Of a DNA stretch of 23,524 nucleotides, positions 2,652-11,000 are shown in pieces. Origin of the DNA: a virus; IMG/VR virus record IMGVR_UViG_3300033571_001641, positions 1 to 23,524 of that record. The stretch is one strand, 5' to 3'. Position 1 is the stretch's first letter, and every line of letters starts with the position of its first letter. The translations under genes and the position numbers were made by a program. Below the pieces are notes generated by a model. The model was given only the letters and a program-made list of their open reading frames with translations. It made no database searches and was not told the origin of the DNA.

Positions 2652-3296
2652 CTATTTGTCAACTTCTGACTCAGAAATATCATAATTGTATGCATTTGAG
2701 TCTTCTAAAATCCACTTATCGTAACTTTCAACATCCCACTTATTTGTATTTACTAGTCTGTGAATTAGAAGATCAGGCTTAGTAACAAATGAAGGCTCGT
2801 ATAATCTAATTCTATTGTTAGGCTGTATAGCAAAATTGCCATCATCTCTTTGGATAACATGGCCACATTTATGTTGACCTGGGTTCTCAGAGTATCCATC
2901 ATCTAGCACATTGCTATCTGGATTATGCCAATCTAAAGTAAATAAATATTTACCAGGCACCTGATTCTTTTCTCTATCTATATACGACATTCTCATGTTG
3001 CTTAGGTTTTCAAATTTTGTAACTGCTACGTGTGGACTAAAAGAATTCCAAAGCACAAGGTTATAGATTGGTTCTTCAGGAACTCCTGGCTTTGTACAAA
3101 ATGCATTAATTGGCATTCTCCACCAAATTCCACCATCTTCCATTAAAAGATGAAATAAAGGACTTCTACTTTTAACACTAGACACACCAAAAATTACACA
3201 TGGGAAATATTTGTCGTGGCTGTCTTCTTGATCTCTTAAAAAATTACCACGAACATAACATTCAATTGGCGGTATATTAGCATTTAACTCTGGCAT
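2652..3296 (-). CDS. Conserved phage protein of unknown function
   Basis: I cannot assign a function to this 214-residue protein. It is soluble, with no signal peptide or membrane segment. It is unusually rich in aromatic and Asn/Asp/His residues, for example MEDGGIWWRMP (52-62), LFTLDWHNPDSNVLDDG (118-134) and GQHKCGHVIQRDDGNFA (141-157), followed by a predicted strand-rich stretch (IQPNNRIRLYEPSF). The His, Cys and Asp residues in the middle could form a metal site, but this is speculative. The composition and a compact beta-rich pattern suggest a folded enzyme or binding domain rather than a structural filler. The ATG at 3296 is set by GAGG 4 bases upstream and overlaps the RuvC-like gene stop by one base (TAATG). 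It sits between the resolvase and packaging genes. From memory, similar proteins occur in other phages of this type. Confidence 0.75.
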   Translation of the reverse strand: MPELNANIPPIECYVRGNFLRDQEDSHDKYFPCVIFGVSSVKSRSPLFHLLMEDGGIWWRMPINAFCTKPGVPEEPIYNLVLWNSFSPHVAVTKFENLSNMRMSYIDREKNQVPGKYLFTLDWHNPDSNVLDDGYSENPGQHKCGHVIQRDDGNFAIQPNNRIRLYEPSFVTKPDLLIHRLVNTNKWDVESYDKWILEDSNAYNYDISESEVDK

Positions 3297-3880
3297 TATT
3301 CCTCAACTCTCATTGCTTTATTCCAATTGTCTAGTGCCCAGTGGCCAATTGCCACAGCATCGGCAACATCGTTATCTGATATTTCTCTATCATAATTAAT
3401 ATTAACAAACCTTATAGTCTTTTCTTTTCTTAGGCTACGCTCATGACTTTTTAACCAAGAGTCAGACTTACCTGGATGTTGAGCCTTTAACGCTATACGA
3501 TCTTCCTTGCTTGGCTTTTTATTACCAATATAAGATTGCCACGTAATTGGTGATACTGATCCTATTTCAGATACCCCGCTTTCCCACAACGCCGCTAAGA
3601 TTCCGCCTTGAACTAATGCTAAATCTGCAGCGGTCTTTGGACTATTAATAAAGACTGTATGTTCTATTACAACTCCGTCAATTGCATATCTGTCAAACAA
3701 TGCTCTTGTTTTTGCATAAGCGTCTCCAATTTTTTCATATATATTGCTTCCCTCAAATTTAATTTTTCCATTACAAACTAGTTTTTTGTTAGTAAAAATA
3801 GCAAAACCTAAACTATTGGTACTGGCGTCTAAAGAACAAATTGTTTCTGGAGAAATCCCTTTTAATATTTTTAGTATCAC
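3296..3880 (-). CDS. RuvC-like Holliday junction resolvase
   Basis: This is probably a structure-specific endonuclease that cuts four-way or branched DNA. The 194-residue protein has the RuvC/RNase H-like arrangement. The first acidic residue is D18 in SLDASTNSLGFAIF. The second is E73 at the end of a hydrophobic strand (GVVIEHTVF). A final acidic helix, DNDVADAVAIGHWAL (169-183), gives D171 and D174. Cellular RuvC is about 170 residues, so the length fits. The start is GTG, four-base coupled (GTGA) to the zinc-knuckle gene upstream. The stop overlaps the next ATG by one base. In a phage that also encodes RecA and terminase, the expected job is to resolve recombination intermediates before packaging. 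Confidence 0.88.
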   Translation of the reverse strand: MILKILKGISPETICSLDASTNSLGFAIFTNKKLVCNGKIKFEGSNIYEKIGDAYAKTRALFDRYAIDGVVIEHTVFINSPKTAADLALVQGGILAALWESGVSEIGSVSPITWQSYIGNKKPSKEDRIALKAQHPGKSDSWLKSHERSLRKEKTIRFVNINYDREISDNDVADAVAIGHWALDNWNKAMRVEE

Positions 3881-4152
3881 TTTGACATTCCTTTTATTTG
3901 TTTTAATACTTTTGTAACGCTTTTTGGATTAATTGAGCATTCATAGCATATTTGATCATCATTATATATTGACAAAGGTCCTTTACAGTTTATACACTTT
4001 CTATCTTTAGACTTTCTTTTTTGTCTTTTTGACATAGAGTATCTTGTAAGAATTTTTTCTTTTGTTGCTGCATTTCTACAGTCGGGACTACAATATATCT
4101 GATAAGATACATTTGGACTGAATCTACCATCACACCAACTACACGGCTTCAC
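3877..4152 (-). CDS. Small protein with two zinc knuckles
   Basis: This 91-residue basic protein has two four-cysteine clusters. The first is C4-x2-C7 with C21-x3-C25 (PCSWC and YCSPDC). The second is C53-x2-C56 with C69-x2-C72 (KCINC and ICYEC). A strongly basic linker, SKRQKRKSKDRK, joins them. Each cluster should bind one zinc ion, and the linker suggests contact with nucleic acid. The start is GTG at 4152, supported by GGAGG six bases upstream, and overlaps the end of the Cas4-like gene by 14 bases. The stop overlaps the RuvC-like start by four bases. The tight packing suggests it acts with the neighbouring nucleases, but the exact role is unknown. Confidence 0.8.
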   Translation of the reverse strand: MKPCSWCDGRFSPNVSYQIYCSPDCRNAATKEKILTRYSMSKRQKRKSKDRKCINCKGPLSIYNDDQICYECSINPKSVTKVLKQIKGMSK

Positions 4153-4960
4153 TCAATTCCTCCAGGGCTGCTATTTTTATAGTCCCCGCTTCAGCACTTG
4201 CACATGCTTTTTGAATTGGACAGTTTTTACAAATCTTTGAATTTGATCTGTAATTTTTTTGTGGAATAGTTCTATCCTTCCACGCTTTCTTTACTGTACG
4301 CATCCATTCAAATGCATCTTCTACCCATTTTCTATAATAATCATTAACTTGAACTGGAATAACTAATAGTTCGTGGTTATTTTTATTTTCATAAATCAAT
4401 ACTGCTTTTTTCTTTCCTAAAATTTTCATATAAATTAATATTTGAATTAAATGTCCAGCCTTAGCCTTGCCAGTATTTTTTCTATACTCAAAGCCTTCGT
4501 TTGGAACTGTTTTAATTTCACCTAGCACGTCTTCGCCATCCCACTTAAGCATGACGTCACCGTAACCAAAAATACCTGGATCTTGGTTTATAATTTTAAA
4601 CTCAGTTGTTTCTTGATTATCTTCATCTCTATAAATATTAGCAATTCCAGCATCCATCATTGCCTGTTGAATTCTTGCGTGAGATAATGTTCCATTAGTT
4701 CTATTTGCTACACCGTAAGCATCAGAATTATCTTCAAACTCTGCTCCGTCGAAAGCCAGGTACCAATACCTAGCACACTCTCCGTGATTGTATGCAATTG
4801 TAGATGGCGCAAAAGTTTTCTTTTGCGTATGCTTTGGAATGTTATTTATAACATACCCTGTTTCAATTTTACTAATTAATTCTTTTGGATCTAAAAATTG
4901 TTCTGGTCTATCTGCTTCTTTCTTTTTAATCATTACTTGCTTTAATAGATTGCTTGTCAT
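4139..4960 (-). CDS. Cas4/RecB-like PD-(D/E)XK exonuclease with iron-sulfur cluster motif
   Basis: The 273-residue protein matches the Cas4/AddB nuclease plan. One cysteine lies near the N-terminus (C62 in GECARYWY) and three near the C-terminus (C244, C247, C253 in CKNCPIQKAC), the usual four ligands of a 4Fe-4S cluster. Between them are the catalytic elements: H94 (TLSHARIQ), D135 (GYGDVMLKW), E148-x-K150 (LGEIKTV) and the Q163-x3-Y167 motif (HLIQILIYM). Such enzymes resect DNA ends. There is no CRISPR array or other cas gene here, so a recombination role next to RecA is more likely than spacer acquisition. The ATG at 4960 has an AAAGGAA site six bases upstream and follows one of the few real gaps in the window. 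Confidence 0.88.
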   Translation of the reverse strand: MTSNLLKQVMIKKKEADRPEQFLDPKELISKIETGYVINNIPKHTQKKTFAPSTIAYNHGECARYWYLAFDGAEFEDNSDAYGVANRTNGTLSHARIQQAMMDAGIANIYRDEDNQETTEFKIINQDPGIFGYGDVMLKWDGEDVLGEIKTVPNEGFEYRKNTGKAKAGHLIQILIYMKILGKKKAVLIYENKNNHELLVIPVQVNDYYRKWVEDAFEWMRTVKKAWKDRTIPQKNYRSNSKICKNCPIQKACASAEAGTIKIAALEELSEAV

Positions 4961-4992
4961 AGTTTCCTTTGTTTGTATAAGTATATCAGAGA
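4961..4992 (-). promoter_or_regulatory. Largest intergenic gap, with a possible -10 element
   Basis: These 32 bases before the Cas4-like gene are the longest gap in the window. Read on the minus strand they contain TATACT, one mismatch from TATAAT, followed closely by TTATAC and then the ribosome binding site. I do not see a good -35 box 17 bases upstream. The AT-rich background makes a chance match easy. It is listed because it is one of the few places where a promoter would not sit inside a gene. Confidence 0.2.
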
Positions 4993-5298
4993 TTAGCGAG
5001 TAACGTATTTTAATGCTGAGACTAAATTATTAATTGATTCTGCTGCAGTGTAGTATATATTTTTCTTTGCTCTGTTGCTTTTATCTACATTTGCCATCCA
5101 AGTAGCCTTTAGCGCTAATTTTGAAGCAATTGCTTGAAGCCTAACAATTTCAATGGTTGCTACTGCAATTGGAATGTCTGGCCTGGTAATTAGTTTAGCA
5201 ATCATTTCTAAAGAGGTGGTCAATTCTTTATCATCCATGTATTCAGCAATTTCTACCAAACCGTTAATAGATTCTAACGTTGTCTTTTCTGGCTCCAT
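4993..5298 (-). CDS. Small helical conserved protein of unknown function
   Basis: The 101-residue protein is predicted to be almost wholly alpha-helical. It has an acidic N-terminal third and a basic later segment (DKSNRAKKNIYYTAAESINN, about 71-90). The pattern LQAIASKLALKATWMA (54-69) is amphipathic and could form a helix bundle or oligomer. I recognise no catalytic motif. The ATG at 5298 overlaps the stop of the second oxygenase gene by one base (TAATG), with no independent ribosome binding site, so translation is probably coupled. It lies between an oxygenase and the Cas4-like nuclease. From memory, similar small proteins occur beside recombination genes in actinobacterial phages. Confidence 0.7.
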   Translation of the reverse strand: MEPEKTTLESINGLVEIAEYMDDKELTTSLEMIAKLITRPDIPIAVATIEIVRLQAIASKLALKATWMANVDKSNRAKKNIYYTAAESINNLVSALKYVTR

Positions 5299-5954
5299 TA
5301 TTTATCGCTTTCTAGTTGTTTTACCTGATTAAAGAATTGCTCCCTATACTCTTTCATTCTTGGAAGATTATTGTGATAGTCAATAATTTTTTGTCTTTCA
5401 TCTTTATCCATTTGTTTTTCAACATAAGGTTGATGATCATTCTTATTAGAAAAATGAAACACTATAACTTCACAACGATCTTCTTCTTTTAATTTAATTG
5501 GATCTCTCCAATGAATTCTTTCTGCTGCCTCAAAAACTAAAACTTGACTGTTTTTTAAAACAAACTTTTCACCTTCAATAACAACAGCCCAATCAATATT
5601 TGAATTCATTTGATAGTCTACACTTATTTTAGTGTAATAATTTTCAGTATCTAAGTGTGGTGGCAACATGGGGGATTGGCCTTTACCATACTTGCCGTAA
5701 TAATCTAAATATTGATAATGACTTAAAATTAAATCTGGATCGTTATAATACTTTTTTGCAAGATCTACTAATTTTTTTTCAATATCTTCTGGCAAAACAA
5801 ATTCAATTTGCATTCTTGACATAGACTCAATAATCATTGGAGCAAATCTACTTGAGTTAGGATCTAGTTGACGATTTGTTTCAACAAGATTACGCAGAAT
5901 ATCTTGATCTTCTTTAGTAAAAAATTCATCTAAAACTGCAGTTACTGTTTCCAT
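5298..5954 (-). CDS. 2-oxoglutarate/Fe(II)-dependent oxygenase-like protein, second paralog
   Basis: The 218-residue protein has the iron-binding pattern of the 2OG-Fe(II) (prolyl 4-hydroxylase-like) superfamily: H100-x-D102 in PPHLDTE, and a distal H148 in RIHWRDP, with basic residues just after that could hold 2-oxoglutarate. The stretch between them (SNIDWAVVIEG, LVFEAAERIHWR, VIVFHFS) aligns closely with the protein encoded at 6236-6844, so the two are paralogs. Family members hydroxylate proteins, small molecules or nucleic acid bases. The substrate here is unknown. The ATG at 5954 has no Shine-Dalgarno sequence but is preceded at exactly six bases by TATAAT. The C-terminal 50 residues are helical and charged. 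Confidence 0.75.
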   Translation of the reverse strand: METVTAVLDEFFTKEDQDILRNLVETNRQLDPNSSRFAPMIIESMSRMQIEFVLPEDIEKKLVDLAKKYYNDPDLILSHYQYLDYYGKYGKGQSPMLPPHLDTENYYTKISVDYQMNSNIDWAVVIEGEKFVLKNSQVLVFEAAERIHWRDPIKLKEEDRCEVIVFHFSNKNDHQPYVEKQMDKDERQKIIDYHNNLPRMKEYREQFFNQVKQLESDK

Positions 5955-5966
5955 ATTTATATTATA
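5955..5966 (-). promoter_or_regulatory. Candidate leaderless-type promoter (-10 TATAAT) before the second oxygenase gene
   Basis: On the minus strand the sequence is GGTATAAT, six bases, then the ATG. Transcription starting 6-7 bases after the -10 would begin at the start codon itself. Leaderless mRNAs of this kind are common in Actinomycetota. There is no ribosome binding site before this ATG, which fits. No convincing -35 box is visible. In AT-rich DNA a chance match is possible. Confidence 0.4.
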
Positions 5967-6252
5967 CCCTATCCACTAGTTCTTCTATAACGCCAAGTTC
6001 TGCTATTAACAATCTTACTTTTTGAGTTCCCTCGCCCAATACAATTATTAATGCTGGAGACTTATCTGTTCCAGATTTTATTGCATCTGTAGTAACTTTT
6101 GCCCAAACTTTTTGATTTAATGTAAAAGATTTTGACGCCTCTTTAATATCAATAACAAAATCATTCCAAGTTGCGTCTCCTTTTTTATTACCACGACCAG
6201 AATTTTTATGTGCTTTTGCATTCATTCTTTTTATTTCAGATTTTTCGGTCAC
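5962..6252 (-). CDS. Small PD-(D/E)XK nuclease, possible Hjc-type Holliday junction resolvase
   Basis: The 96-residue protein begins with a Gly/Lys-rich loop (NSGRGNKKGDATW) that holds the first acidic residue, D26. It then has a strand ending in D35-x-K37 (FVIDIKEASKSF), followed by a helix and a hydrophobic strand (PALIIVLGEG). This is the core of the PD-(D/E)XK fold as seen in small phage and archaeal resolvases. The start is GTG at 6252, with AAGGG seven bases upstream; it overlaps the first oxygenase gene by 17 bases. An ATG at 6225 is an alternative that keeps the whole fold. It lies between two paralogous oxygenases. A non-resolvase nuclease of the same fold remains possible. Confidence 0.68.
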   Translation of the reverse strand: MTEKSEIKRMNAKAHKNSGRGNKKGDATWNDFVIDIKEASKSFTLNQKVWAKVTTDAIKSGTDKSPALIIVLGEGTQKVRLLIAELGVIEELVDRV

Positions 6253-6844
6253 GCTTTAACCCTTCAATAATATCTTGATAAAACTTATCCATATAATATA
6301 TAAGGCTTTTTATGCGTTCTCTAGTTTCTTCAAGAGATATTTTTTTATTATTGTCTACTAAAGAAAAATGACAAAAAACCATATCAATAAAATCATCGTC
6401 TTTAAAGTTTCTTGGAGTTCTCCAATGGATTTGGCTTGTACCAGAAAAAACCAAAGCCTCATTATCTTTTAAAGTATAAGGTTTGCCTTCAACAACAATT
6501 GGCCAAGAAATATTTGACTTTAGTTGCAAGTCAAATGTAAACCTAGGCTCTTCAAAAGTTGAATCAAAATGTGGGCTTAGTATTGGATCTGGGGCGTCAA
6601 TTTTTCTGTAAGTAGCAAAAGATATTTCAGTTAGTTTAATTTTTTCTGGATAAATGTTTTGGACAAACAAAGAGATTTTATCTACAACATGTTTTGGCAA
6701 ATCAACAAAATATGCTTTTTGCCTATAGTGCTGCAAAGTCATTGTTTGACTTTCTTGTGCTTTTTCAATTTCAACATAAATGTCTTTGATGTCTTGTTCT
6801 GACAGTATGTTTTTATATATTTTATTTTCTAATTTAGTATTCAT
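6236..6844 (-). CDS. 2-oxoglutarate/Fe(II)-dependent oxygenase-like protein, first paralog
   Basis: This 202-residue protein has the same double motif as its neighbour: H92-x-D94 in LSPHFDS and H140 in SQIHWRTP, with matching connecting strands (SNISWPIVVEG, LVFSGTSQIHWR, MVFCHFS). These are the Fe(II) ligands of the 2OG oxygenase superfamily. The frame can be extended upstream to a TTG at 6862, but the ATG at 6844 is the better start, with a short AGGT and a TACAAT element just before it. The N-terminal 70 residues are helical and differ from the paralog, so substrate specificity may differ. Its stop overlaps the GTG of the small nuclease gene. The substrate is unknown; protein, nucleotide or DNA base hydroxylation are all possible. 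Confidence 0.73.
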   Translation of the reverse strand: MNTKLENKIYKNILSEQDIKDIYVEIEKAQESQTMTLQHYRQKAYFVDLPKHVVDKISLFVQNIYPEKIKLTEISFATYRKIDAPDPILSPHFDSTFEEPRFTFDLQLKSNISWPIVVEGKPYTLKDNEALVFSGTSQIHWRTPRNFKDDDFIDMVFCHFSLVDNNKKISLEETRERIKSLIYYMDKFYQDIIEGLKRDRKI

Positions 6845-6856
6845 ATACCTATTGTA
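6845..6856 (-). promoter_or_regulatory. Candidate leaderless-type promoter (-10 TACAAT) before the first oxygenase gene
   Basis: On the minus strand TACAAT is followed by six bases and then the ATG at 6844. This is the same spacing as for the paralog at 5954. The only ribosome binding signal is a weak AGGT four bases from the ATG. No -35 box is clear. The repeated spacing in front of two paralogs is the main support. Confidence 0.3.
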
Positions 6857-7031
6857 CCTCAAAATCTTTCTTTCTTTTTTTAGGAGGAACCATGTTTACC
6901 TTTGAAATATGCTTTTCTGAACACATCCACGTTGCATCTCCAGTTTCTGGCCAGTATCTTAAAAGAGCAACTTCAATTCCACATTTCTTACATGGCCATT
7001 TTCCAGGGTATACTGAAAAAGTTTTATCCAA
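6849..7031 (-). CDS. Small zinc-binding protein
   Basis: The 60-residue protein has a CxxC pair (C14, C17 in WPCKKCG) and a later C37 with H41 (WMCSEKH), a possible three-cysteine, one-histidine zinc site. It ends in a basic tail, PPKKRKKDFE. It must start at TTG (7031): an in-frame stop lies three codons upstream and no other start codon comes before C14. The gene overlaps the end of recA by 8 bases, so it is probably translated by coupling. Its size and charge suggest a nucleic-acid or protein adaptor. No function can be named. Confidence 0.65.
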   Translation of the reverse strand: MDKTFSVYPGKWPCKKCGIEVALLRYWPETGDATWMCSEKHISKVNMVPPKKRKKDFEVQ

Positions 7032-8040
7032 GTTCTTCTACCTTATTTTTTATAAGATTAAATAGTTCTTTATCTTCTTTAACGCGATTGACAAAACCAT
7101 CTCTTCCTTGAACTTTTGAGCCATCTGGCAATAAATACCAAGCACCTGTTCGCTCTACAATTCCCATTAACTCAGCAGTGTCAACAAGGTCACCAGCAGA
7201 ATCAAGACCAATATTGTCGCCACGGAAATAAAAGTCATATTCTCCAGATTGAAACCCTGGTGAAGTTTTAGAAAATTGTAATTCCCAACGAATCTTTCTA
7301 CCGATTTTTTCTTCAATCAACTTATCGCCAACCTTTATTTTACCCTTAATGGCTTGGTTGTCAGACTCAGAAGAAAACAATTTAATCACACATGATGAAT
7401 AAAACTTAGTAGCCTGTCCTCCAGAAGGTTGCTGGCTGGTATACATAGCATTAATGTTGTTACGGCTTTGACTAATAAGAACTAAAAGAGTTGGTTTAAC
7501 TTTATTATTTGCATAGTTAAGCATTTTCCAAGCATTACTAAAGTCACGAGACTCTGCTCCAATTTGTTTTGTATTTTCTAAGGCTTTCATTTCATCTGTA
7601 TCTTTTTCAAAATAAATTGCAGGAAGCATTGAAGTTATTGAGTCTATAACAATTAAATCAACTCCAGCATTTATTAATCCAACTCCTACATCAACCATGT
7701 CACTGATAGTTCTTGCTTGTGAATAAATCAATTTTGTTGGATCTACGCCAAGTTGTTTTGCCCAATCTTCAGAGTAAGACATTTCTGAATCAATCCAAGC
7801 ACAAACCTTTCCTTCTTTTTGTGCAAGAGCAATCATTTGTAAACACATAGATGACTTAGCAGATGACTTACTACCCCAGATTAACACTTGACGACCATAT
7901 GGAAGTCCGCCTCCAAGTGCTTTATTTAATCCGTAACTAGGCGTTGGTTGGTGCTCAAAAGAAATTCCTTCCCCAGTTCCAAGTCGCTTTCTTAATTTAG
8001 GGTCTAACTGCGCTAATACTTCATCTATTGTTATTGTCAT
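7024..8040 (-). CDS. recA: RecA-type recombinase
   Basis: This is a strand-exchange ATPase that forms filaments on single-stranded DNA. The 338-residue protein covers the RecA core. The P-loop is at 56-63 (GSKSSAKS). The catalytic Glu region is IDSEMSYSEDW (E86). Walker B is LIVIDSITS (D133). The DNA-binding loop 2 region ends in PSGGQATKFYSS, which parallels the TGGNALKFYAS of bacterial RecA. The C-terminal part has the GAWYLLPDG motif. The P-loop differs from the bacterial GPESSGKT, with Ala before the Lys and Ser after it. Length is similar to bacterial RecA (about 350). The ATG at 8040 overlaps the end of dnaE by 20 bases and has GGAGG nine bases upstream. It probably supports recombination-dependent replication with the nearby nucleases. 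Confidence 0.95.
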   Translation of the reverse strand: MTITIDEVLAQLDPKLRKRLGTGEGISFEHQPTPSYGLNKALGGGLPYGRQVLIWGSKSSAKSSMCLQMIALAQKEGKVCAWIDSEMSYSEDWAKQLGVDPTKLIYSQARTISDMVDVGVGLINAGVDLIVIDSITSMLPAIYFEKDTDEMKALENTKQIGAESRDFSNAWKMLNYANNKVKPTLLVLISQSRNNINAMYTSQQPSGGQATKFYSSCVIKLFSSESDNQAIKGKIKVGDKLIEEKIGRKIRWELQFSKTSPGFQSGEYDFYFRGDNIGLDSAGDLVDTAELMGIVERTGAWYLLPDGSKVQGRDGFVNRVKEDKELFNLIKNKVEELG

Positions 8041-11000
8041 TTATTACATCCTCCAGGATTGTTGTGCCTTCTTTGGTTTCACCAAAAGTAAATTTATAGT
8101 AATTGCCTTCTTTAATATGCATGTATGCTTTTGCAAATGCTGTGGGGAATACTGTTACTGAGTGTAAGTCTCTACTGCTGTCTGCTAATGTTAACAGTCC
8201 CATTTTTTTACCCGCTTTTGTGGTTCTAGATTTAAAAGATATTACATAATGTTGATCGTCAGCATATGGCAACATCTTATAATTTAAGAACTTTACAAGT
8301 GGGTTTGCAGAGCCTTTAAGTTCTTCCGCAGGGATAGCACTAACAATTCTATTATCAGAGGCTAGCAAAAGATATGTCTTGCCACTTTCAATTGTAGTCT
8401 GCTCATCATCAAAAATACCAACAGAACCAGTTTTATCTAAAATATCTACACGAGACCAACCCTTACCACGTTTAATAGTTTTAATCATTCCCATTAATAC
8501 AAAAGATCCTTTTTCTTCAAAATCAGAAACATCATTAATAAATGCATGATAGTGAGATGGAATAGTTATATTGAATTCTGGAAGGTTTAAGAATTCATAA
8601 AGATTGTTTTTAATATCTTCATCATTTCTTGGATTATCTGAAAAGGTTGCTGCGCCAATTGATCTTAATGAATTTAAGGCTCTGCTATTAACCCCGTTAC
8701 CTTTAGTAAAAGTAAACTCTTCTAATTCTTTGTAAGTTTTAAAAGGTCTTGCAGCAATATACCTATCTGCAATTGTATCTGAAATATACTTGATTGATGA
8801 TAAACCAAATCTAATTCCCTTACCTTCAATTTTAAAATCTTTGTCGGAATCATTAATGTGTGGAAGTTTTACTGAAATGTCCATTCTCTTTGCTTCAATT
8901 AAGTATTCAGTCCTATTGTCTGGATCTTTTTCATTCTTAAGCAAAGCAAACATAAACTCTAACGGGTAGTAGTATTTGAGCCACGCCGTCCAATACGAGA
9001 GAGTAGAGTAAGCGACTGCATGGCTCTTATTGAACGAGTACCCCGCATGCGCCTCAAAGTCCTGCCATAGATCACGAGCCAAATTGGGGCTAATATAATT
9101 AGAAGCACCCTTAACAAACTTTTCTTTAAAAACATCGAACTCCCTCGCATTTTTCTTTTTACCAATAATTTTACGGACTTGATCTGATTCAGATTTTGTC
9201 ATACCGCCTAACTCAACACAAGCCTGCATAACTTGTTCCTGATACAAGATACATCCGTATGTTTCTGATGTAATCTTTTTTAAGACATCGTGCAAAAATG
9301 TTACTTTTTGCTTTCCATGTTTTCTTAAAATGTAATCTTTTCCAATAGTATTCATAGCACCTGGTCTAACCAAAGCATTGGATGCTGCTAATTCAGAAAG
9401 ATTTTTAACGCCCATTTTCACTAAAAGATTTGTGTATGGCGTTGCTTCGCATTGAAAAACTCCTTTAGTATATCCAGACGACAACATCTCATAAACCAAA
9501 TCATCATCCATATTTATTTCTAATAAGTTAATTTTTTTAAATTGTCTTTTTTCAATTTCTGCAATTGTATCTTGAACCACACTTAAAGTTTTAAGTCCAA
9601 GGGCATCTATCTTGATAAGTCCAATTTTTTCTGCTTCTTCCATATCAACAGCAACAACTGGAATTCTTTCGTTAGATCCTGGAGAAGAGCGAGTTTCTAG
9701 GGGAGCGTGTTTAAAGATTGGAGTCTTGCTGGTAACAACTCCAGCAGCATGGATACCAGTTCCACGAATACGTCCACGAAGTTGTTCTCCTAGTTTTTCA
9801 ATTTCTGGATATTTTTCTCTAAACCAAACAGTATTTTTATTTGAACAATACTCTTCCCAAGTATCTATTGTTTTTAAAACTTTATTAACATCTGACAAAG
9901 GAACATTTAATGCTCTTGCAACATCTCGAACAACTCCCTTATCTTTAAATTCTAAAAATGTAGCAATAGATGCTACGTGTCTATATTGTCTAACAAGATA
10001 ATCTTTAACTTCATCACGTCTAGAATCTTGAATATCAGTATCTATATCTGGGAAGTCATTTCTTTCTGGATTAATAAAACGGAAAAACAATAGGTCATGC
10101 TCTATTGGATCAATTTCTGTAATGCCAAGTAAATAACAAAGCAAAGAACCAGCAGAAGATCCACGACCTGGACCAACTAAAATTCCTTCTTTTTTTGCCC
10201 AATTTATCATATTGCTTACAACAAGAAAATAAGGTGCAAACTCTTTATCTCTGATTACGGATAACTCTTCGTCAAGTCTTTGTTCGTAAATATCATTTCC
10301 AAGCCAATTAGAATTTAATCTTTTTTCTTCTAGCCCAGCCAATGCTAGATTTGCCAACTCTTCATCTGGATTTTTATATTGAACTGGAAGTAAGTTGAGT
10401 TTATCTTTAATATTATAATCTTTAATCTTATCTGCAATTTCTAAAGTATTAGCATAGATGTCTTCTCTATGGATGTCATGCTCAAGCATTGCATTTTTAA
10501 TTTCATCATATGATAAAAGATGTATGTCAAATCTATTGAAACTCATCATTCTGTCTTTACCATATAGGTAATCAAGGCGACGCATCATGTCTTTAATGCT
10601 TTTAGATTTTTCATATGTAGCATTTTTTTCTAATTTTGCGTGAGTATTTAAAATAAGCATTAACTCTTGGATTTCTTTTTGTGATACATCCGCATGGTGG
10701 CAATCAGGAGTAACAATAGGCTTAATGTGAAACTCGTCTGCCAAATCTAATAAAGCAATGTTAACTTGTGCTGAGTTATGTGGCATAAGTTCAATATAGT
10801 AATCATCGCCAAACACTCTCTTAAACCATAAAATTCTTTCTTTTGCTATTGCGTAATTATCTGACTCTACGGCCTTAGCAATAATTCCACTTAAACATGC
10901 AGAGGTAACAATGATTCCTTTGCTGTATTTTTCTAAAGTTTCAAAATCAAACCTTGGTTTTCTAAAAAACCCTTCTGTCCATGCAATTTCATTAATCTTA

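What the first reader, a model, noticed from the sequence alone, without database searches (positions are those of the whole stretch)
5298..6844. Two paralogous 2OG-Fe(II) oxygenases bracket a small PD-(D/E)XK nuclease
The proteins at 6236-6844 and 5298-5954 share HxD...H iron motifs (H92/D94/H140 and H100/D102/H148) and aligned connecting strands (SNIxW, VEG, LVF, IHWR, HFS). They sit on either side of a nuclease of about 96 residues. Duplication and retention in a compact phage genome suggests two distinct substrates, or a heterodimer. A set of base-modifying enzymes plus a modification-sensitive nuclease is one reading. Hydroxylation of a host protein is another. No such three-gene unit is known to me.
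Basis: partly seen in the sequence, partly recalled or inferred. Interest (0 to 1): 0.62.

Follow-up and report, generated by a model that had tools for sequence, protein, structure and literature searches.

The report
Phage oxygenase pair beside a resolvase
Two old sister genes for oxygen-using enzymes, apparently expressed from their own tiny promoters, have been inserted on either side of a standard DNA-recombination nuclease in a phage probably of actinobacteria; they belong to a widespread phage enzyme family that databases wrongly call 'ferrochelatase'.

Summary
ORFs 5298-5954 (O1) and 6236-6844 (O2) are paralogous Fe(II)/2-oxoglutarate oxygenases: BLASTP E=7e-21, invariant HxD...HxR, confident AlphaFold models that match PHD2/AlkB-type enzymes. 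They bracket a 96-aa PD-(D/E)XK protein.

The 'three-gene unit' is not supported. The nuclease is the core Holliday-junction resolvase (phrog_2002) of a fixed PolIII-RecA-Zn-nuclease-p9818-Cas4-RuvC cassette, also found in Streptomyces phages. In 54 of 108 distinct cassettes it has no oxygenase beside it.

The oxygenases are accessory, moron-like genes. In the whole window the motif TAYAAT-N6-ATG (a -10 box with leaderless geometry) occurs only twice, directly before O1 and O2. In relatives it heads 61/72 oxygenase blocks following Zn or the nuclease, against 0/866 core genes; the box overlaps the nuclease's stop codon.

O1 and O2 come from an ancient duplication and are kept together: 39 of 40 cassettes with an O1-type gene also have an O2-type gene, in changing order. 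That supports two distinct tasks.

No Pfam family covers them. They are homologous to phrog_2954, the 'ferrochelatase' of cyanophages and pelagiphages, very probably a misannotated 2OG oxygenase family used in published ecology. The substrate is unknown; I favour a protein over DNA.

The parts
5298..5954 (-). O1: 2OG-Fe(II) oxygenase, clade A paralogue, 218 aa; Fe ligands H100, D102, H148; invariant R150
5961..5966 (-). -10 box TATAAT of O1, six bases before its ATG (leaderless geometry); overlaps the last Val codon and the stop codon of the nuclease gene (GTA TAA T)
5962..6252 (-). Nuclease: 96-aa PD-(D/E)XK Holliday-junction-resolvase-like protein (phrog_2002), core gene of the recombination cassette
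6236..6844 (-). O2: 2OG-Fe(II) oxygenase, clade B paralogue, 202 aa; Fe ligands H92, D94, H140; invariant R142
6851..6856 (-). -10 box TACAAT of O2, six bases before its ATG; overlaps the stop codon of the upstream zinc-ribbon-like gene
6849..7031 (-). Small Cys-rich (zinc-ribbon-like) protein, core cassette gene 'Zn'
7024..8040 (-). RecA/UvsX-like recombinase, core cassette gene
4993..5298 (-). phrog_9818 protein of unknown function, core cassette gene 'p9818'
4139..4960 (-). Cas4-type exonuclease, core cassette gene
3296..3880 (-). RuvC-like resolvase, core cassette gene

Best explanation
O1 and O2 are working Fe(II)/2-oxoglutarate hydroxylases from an ancient duplication inside a phage-specific family. 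They are moron-like accessory genes: each block has been inserted into a fixed DNA-recombination operon, beside the core PD-(D/E)XK Holliday-junction resolvase, and brings its own sigma-70-type -10 box placed so that transcription would start at the A of the ATG, giving a leaderless mRNA as is usual in Actinobacteria. The resolvase works in phage recombination with or without them. Shown by computation: family, fold, intact metal triad, accessory distribution, promoter-like motif, old paired retention. Inferred: catalytic activity, leaderless transcription, and the substrate. I think the pair most likely hydroxylates protein(s) of the infected cell or phage at two different sites or steps (about 0.4 to 0.45), with nucleic acid next (about 0.3) and a small molecule or glycan after that.
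For: Fold and motif: AlphaFold2 pLDDT 92-93, Foldseek hits PHD2, ALKBH5/6/7, AlkB; HxD...HxR invariant in 57 sequences. Accessory status: 54 of 108 distinct cassettes lack any adjacent oxygenase while the nuclease and its neighbours stay; NootNoot and BillNye have the cassette and no family member in 131 and 127 kb. Own promoter: TAYAAT-N6-ATG occurs only twice in the window, at the two oxygenase starts; in relatives 13/15 blocks after Zn and 48/57 after the nuclease have it, 5/52 oxygenases that follow another oxygenase, 0/866 core genes, 2/490 other genes; spacing exactly 6 in 72 of 80. Old pair: tree with the O1 clade at SH-aLRT 98; A with B in 39 of 40. Actinobacterial host: nearest cultured cassettes are Streptomyces and Rhodococcus phages. 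Protein over DNA: both proteins are acidic, pI 5.1 and 6.2; no TS-family partner in 22 contigs; distant family members sit near tail genes rather than recombination genes.
Against: All 76 independently found O2-like loci lie inside the recombination cassette, which could mean a real link to DNA metabolism rather than a convenient landing site. O2's nearest solved structure is an AlkB-type DNA repair enzyme, although PHD2 scores almost the same. No terminator was found beside the blocks, so the classical moron definition is only partly met, and read-through from the operon is likely. The -35 region is not clearly conserved apart from nuclease coding sequence. The Arg two residues after the distal His is not the usual 2OG-binding position, so cofactor binding is unproven.
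Confidence: 0.72

Rival explanations
1. The oxygenases modify nucleic acid (phage DNA hydroxylation against host defences, or AlkB-like repair of DNA or RNA), acting with the recombination cassette in which they lie.
For: Every O2-like gene found by an unbiased scan lies between RecA and Cas4 genes. O2's top PDB matches are AlkB-family enzymes. Earlier authors noted 2OG-dioxygenase genes next to uvsX and uvsY in cyanophage Syn9 and suggested repair (PMC2984593).
Against: No match to the AlkB or Tet_JBP Pfam models. Both proteins are acidic. No thymidylate-synthase-type partner gene in 22 related contigs, and the closest large relative shows no recognisable hypermodification genes among the 29 proteins scanned. 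More distant family members sit in arrays by tail or structural genes instead.
Confidence: 0.25
2. One reading: base-modifying enzymes plus a modification-sensitive nuclease form one functional unit.
For: Adjacency in the window and in dozens of relatives.
Against: The nuclease occurs without adjacent oxygenases in half of the distinct cassettes and in complete Streptomyces phages that lack the oxygenases. It belongs to the Holliday-junction resolvase family phrog_2002. The oxygenase blocks carry their own promoter-like boxes.
Confidence: 0.04
3. O1 and O2 form an obligate heterodimer or act one after the other on the same target.
For: A-type without B-type occurs once in 40 cassettes, B without A ten times in 49; related pairs keep A and B adjacent, or either side of the nuclease, in several orders.
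Against: B-only lineages exist, so B works alone. Fused double domains are B~B in most cases and x~B once, never A~B. Shared descent inflates the co-occurrence counts. No complex was modelled.
Confidence: 0.3
4. The oxygenases modify collagen-like tail fibres, feeding a GT25-type glycosyltransferase, as in collagen glycosylation.
For: The closest large relative carries a collagen-like tail protein and a GT25 gene near each other; pelagiphage and cyanophage members are found near tail, neck or fibre genes.
Against: Collagen-like genes occur equally in contigs with and without the cassette oxygenases, and GT25 occurs in only 3 of 22 contigs.
Confidence: 0.08

Closest known systems
phrog_2954 / phrog_3531 phage proteins named 'ferrochelatase' (e.g. 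S-SM1 SSM1_060 and SSM1_061; HTVC008M AGE60402)
   Same: Homologous: profile-profile E=7e-17, 98.8%; O1 and O2 hit phrog_2954 at 2.6e-6 and 2.6e-5; same HxD...HxR and WPIVVEGK-type core; also in tandem with other 2OG oxygenases.
   Different: Marine family members lie in oxygenase arrays near structural genes, not in a RecA-resolvase-Cas4 cassette; 19-34% identity. The name is wrong: no ferrochelatase profile match.
Recombination cassette of Stanwilliamsviridae (Streptomyces phages NootNoot, BillNye)
   Same: Same order DnaE-RecA-small gene-Holliday junction resolvase-small genes-Cas4 exonuclease-RuvC.
   Different: No oxygenase family member anywhere in those genomes.
2OG-Fe(II) oxygenases next to uvsX/uvsY in cyanophage Syn9 (PMC2984593)
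   Same: Oxygenase genes next to a RecA-like recombinase gene, discussed there as possible repair enzymes.
   Different: Described there as carrying a prolyl 4-hydroxylase domain, whereas O1/O2 match no Pfam oxygenase model; no paired paralogues around a resolvase described; whether those genes belong to this family was not tested.
HIF prolyl hydroxylase PHD2 and AlkB-family enzymes (solved structures)
   Same: Same double-stranded beta-helix and Fe triad layout, Foldseek E about 1e-5.
   Different: TM-scores only about 0.5, 10-16% identity; the invariant Arg sits two residues after the distal His.

Membership tests
2OG-Fe(II) oxygenase superfamily | Double-stranded beta-helix fold | tested here: met
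   AlphaFold2 pLDDT 92.2 and 93.1; top Foldseek hits all 2OG oxygenases
2OG-Fe(II) oxygenase superfamily | HxD...H metal triad | tested here: met
   invariant in 57 aligned members and in the marine branch
2OG-Fe(II) oxygenase superfamily | Arg/Lys that binds 2-oxoglutarate | tested here: inconclusive
   only the Arg two after the distal His is invariant; no model coordinates were available to place it
2OG-Fe(II) oxygenase superfamily | Fe/2OG-dependent turnover | not testable with these tools
   needs purified protein
AlkB (2OG-FeII_Oxy_2) | AlkB profile match | tested here: not met
   no such match at E<=1 for O1/O2 or at E<=0.1 for 48 members
TET/JBP | Tet_JBP profile match | tested here: not met
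   no such match
Prolyl 4-hydroxylase-type 2OG-FeII_Oxy_3 (PF13640) | Pfam profile match | tested here: not met
   no match for O1/O2 or 48 members, while neighbouring phage oxygenases do match
Ferrochelatase (name given to phrog_2954) | Ferrochelatase profile match | tested here: not met
   no Pfam ferrochelatase match in six 'ferrochelatase'-type phage proteins
Phage Holliday junction resolvase phrog_2002 (nuclease) | Profile match and PD-(D/E)XK residues | tested here: met
   E=2.9e-19; E3/E6, D26, D35, K37 invariant
Phage Holliday junction resolvase phrog_2002 (nuclease) | Cleaves four-way junctions | not testable with these tools
   assay needed
Phage moron | Accessory gene between two genes that are adjacent in relatives | tested here: met
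   empty sites in 54 of 108 distinct cassettes
Phage moron | Own promoter | tested here: met
   by sequence only: TAYAAT-N6-ATG at both genes and nowhere else in the window
Phage moron | Own terminator | tested here: not met
   no terminator-like site in 4900-8100

The most novel reading that the evidence does not exclude
A phage-only hydroxylase family, hidden under the name 'ferrochelatase', forms a co-retained enzyme pair that carries out a two-site or two-step hydroxylation of a key host or phage macromolecule during infection, switched on early from leaderless promoters hidden in the stop codons of core recombination genes.
Probability: 0.25. Interest if true: 0.8.

Novelty: new variant of a known kind. 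Interest (0 to 1): 0.58.

Why it matters
It replaces a speculative three-gene modification system with a testable picture: accessory hydroxylases with their own leaderless promoters, plugged beside a core resolvase. It also shows that the 'ferrochelatase' of cyanophages and pelagiphages, which recent marine-virus papers count as a haem-linked auxiliary metabolic gene, is homologous to 2OG-Fe(II) oxygenases. That changes the reading of its reported co-occurrence with 2OG oxygenases (PMC9599517, PMC11561400): two branches of one superfamily, not iron chelation plus oxidation.

Tried and rejected
(1) Pfam, NCBIfam and PDB-sequence searches gave no family for O1/O2. (2) A collagen/GT25 link was tested and rejected as a general explanation: collagen-like genes occur with and without the oxygenases. 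(3) A canonical base-hypermodification partner (thymidylate synthase family) was looked for and not found. (4) Cellular origin: the one genome-contig scan gave 20 pattern hits, none confirmed; the method is insensitive to distant relatives. (5) The diverse alignment A1 could not be used for collection scans, no conserved stretch. (6) Gene-start artefact as the source of the -10 signal: controlled with 866 core and 490 other genes. (7) A hidden -35 box: the weak TTGA-like signal coincides with nuclease coding sequence, so I do not claim it. (8) A heterodimer model could not be run with the folding tool.

Full report
Observation. The three ORFs are real and lie where stated. O1 (5298-5954) and O2 (6236-6844) align over 75 residues at 39% identity, E=7e-21, and O1 finds O2 in its own contig at E=1.5e-19. 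In 57 aligned family members the invariant residues are L, H, D, W, H, R: HxD...HxR. AlphaFold2 gives pLDDT 92.2 (O1) and 93.1 (O2). Foldseek against the PDB returns only 2OG-Fe(II) oxygenases at the top: for O1 6n1f, PHD2, ALKBH7, ALKBH5; for O2 an AlkB-type repair protein, ALKBH5, ALKBH6, PHD2. TM-scores are near 0.5, so fold membership is clear but the subfamily is not. Pfam, NCBIfam and PDB sequence searches do not classify the family.

The nuclease. The 96-residue protein matches phrog_2002, Holliday junction resolvase, at 2.9e-19, with the PD-(D/E)XK residues invariant in 16 relatives. More than 500 relatives were found in viral contigs. Clustering of neighbours shows one fixed order: PolIII alpha, RecA, a small Cys-rich gene (Zn), nuclease, p9818 (phrog_9818), Cas4-type exonuclease, a small gene, RuvC. 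Cultured relatives of the nuclease and of the Cas4 gene are Streptomyces and Rhodococcus phages; NootNoot and BillNye have the same cassette, annotated 'Holliday junction resolvase', with no oxygenase family member in their whole genomes. The host of the window phage is therefore probably an actinobacterium (inference).

Accessory status of the oxygenases. Among 108 distinct cassettes (identical nuclease plus Cas4 sequences merged), 54 have no oxygenase in the cassette; 39 have both an O1-clade (A) and an O2-clade (B) gene, 10 only B, 1 only A, 4 only other members. The nuclease sample was ranked by similarity to oxygenase-bearing loci, so the oxygenase-free share is if anything too low. From the other side, a scan with O2-like sequences gave 76 newly fetched loci, all in this cassette (74 with the nuclease in view, 2 cut off by the contig end). 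Blocks hold one to four domains, before Zn, before the nuclease or after it, and are fused in tandem in some lineages (422-449 aa). Large relatives carry up to eight family domains, the extra ones elsewhere in the genome.

Age and selection. In the tree (169 domains) the O1 clade has 42 rows (SH-aLRT 98) and the O2 clade 71 rows (87). Both classes occur across lineages in the orders B-N-A, N-A-B and N-B-A, so the duplication is older than these phage lineages and the pair has been kept while the order changed. Deep branches are long and some supports are weak, so the root is uncertain. dN/dS between the window and two relatives is 0.14-0.15 (O1) and 0.17-0.30 (O2), comparable to the core genes.

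Leaderless promoters. Reading upstream of every gene in the window, only O1 and O2 have TAYAAT six bases before the ATG, and the motif TAYAAT-N6-ATG occurs exactly twice in the 23.5 kb on both strands, at 5952-5966 and 6842-6856. In relatives 13 of 15 oxygenases that follow Zn and 48 of 57 that follow the nuclease have it, but 5 of 52 that follow another oxygenase, 0 of 866 core genes and 2 of 490 other genes. Where it occurs, the spacing is exactly 6 in 72 of 80. A -10 hexamer at -12 to -7 puts the transcription start on the A of the ATG. In the nuclease gene the box is made by the last Val codon and the stop (GTA TAA T): 48 of 54 nuclease genes directly followed by an oxygenase have it, 2 of 52 followed by p9818 (Fisher 6.6e-21, not corrected for shared descent). 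So each oxygenase block seems to be headed by its own promoter. No terminator was found. Leaderless genes being common in Actinobacteria is established knowledge, not tested here.

Substrate. Tests: no thymidylate-synthase family gene in 22 related contigs; no Tet_JBP or AlkB profile match; acidic pI 5.1 and 6.2, clade medians 5.2. Collagen-like genes occur with and without the oxygenases (with 63 and 106), so that link fails. The recombination-cassette location argues for DNA metabolism; the structural or tail-gene location of marine relatives argues that location is not diagnostic. I lean to protein hydroxylation at about 0.4-0.45, nucleic acid about 0.3. This step is inference.

The 'ferrochelatase' problem. 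O1 and O2 hit phrog_2954, 'ferrochelatase'. The named phage proteins (S-SM1 SSM1_060/061, HTVC008M, HTVC033P, Mosig) and 12 metagenomic relatives all match phrog_2954 (up to 6e-57), all have HxD...HxR, and align with the O2 profile at E=7e-17. None of the six tested matches the Pfam ferrochelatase model. At least 156 phage records carry a member and most of the best-listed ones are named ferrochelatase. PMC9599517 reports that such genes always lie next to a 2OG oxygenase and discusses haem; PMC11561400 builds a seasonal enrichment on phrog2954 as ferrochelatase. The simplest reading is that the family is a 2OG-Fe(II) oxygenase. That some recent records already say 'oxoglutarate/iron-dependent dioxygenase' for it fits. 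I found no paper that makes the correction, but the library searched is open-access only.

Verdict. Real and well conserved; not a three-gene modification system; a moron-like, promoter-bearing hydroxylase pair of an uncharacterised, misnamed phage family.

Noticed in passing
L058:4157-5273 (S-SM1), L139:3980-4621, L140:4001-4645, L141:3836-4606: Genes annotated 'ferrochelatase' (phrog_2954/phrog_3531) are homologues of the window's 2OG-Fe(II) oxygenases and do not match the Pfam ferrochelatase model; published auxiliary-gene claims rest on that name.
   Followed up: yes
window 5952-5966 and 6842-6856: The only two TAYAAT-N6-ATG motifs in the window are the starts of the two oxygenases; one overlaps the stop codon of the nuclease gene.
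   Followed up: yes
L011:6377-7702, L012:6361-7710, L014:6376-7710, L065:4672-6000: Tandem fusion of two oxygenase domains in one protein of 441-449 aa.
   Followed up: partly
G001 (L146-L148) and G002 (L142-L145): Up to eight domains of this oxygenase family in one phage contig, plus four to five PF13640-type oxygenases, partly near glycosyltransferase- and carbamoyltransferase-like genes.
   Followed up: partly
window 3296-3880 and 5962-6252: Two different resolvase-type nucleases (RuvC-like and PD-(D/E)XK) in the same recombination cassette, kept in nearly all relatives.
   Followed up: no
L229:2572-3303 and L229:9256-10002: Collagen-like tail protein and a GT25-family glycosyltransferase gene in the closest large relative of the window phage.
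   Followed up: partly
window 2652-3296: Conserved cassette protein matching phrog_3704, labelled 'ferredoxin' (E=1e-55), with no Pfam or NCBIfam match; the label may be unreliable too.
   Followed up: no
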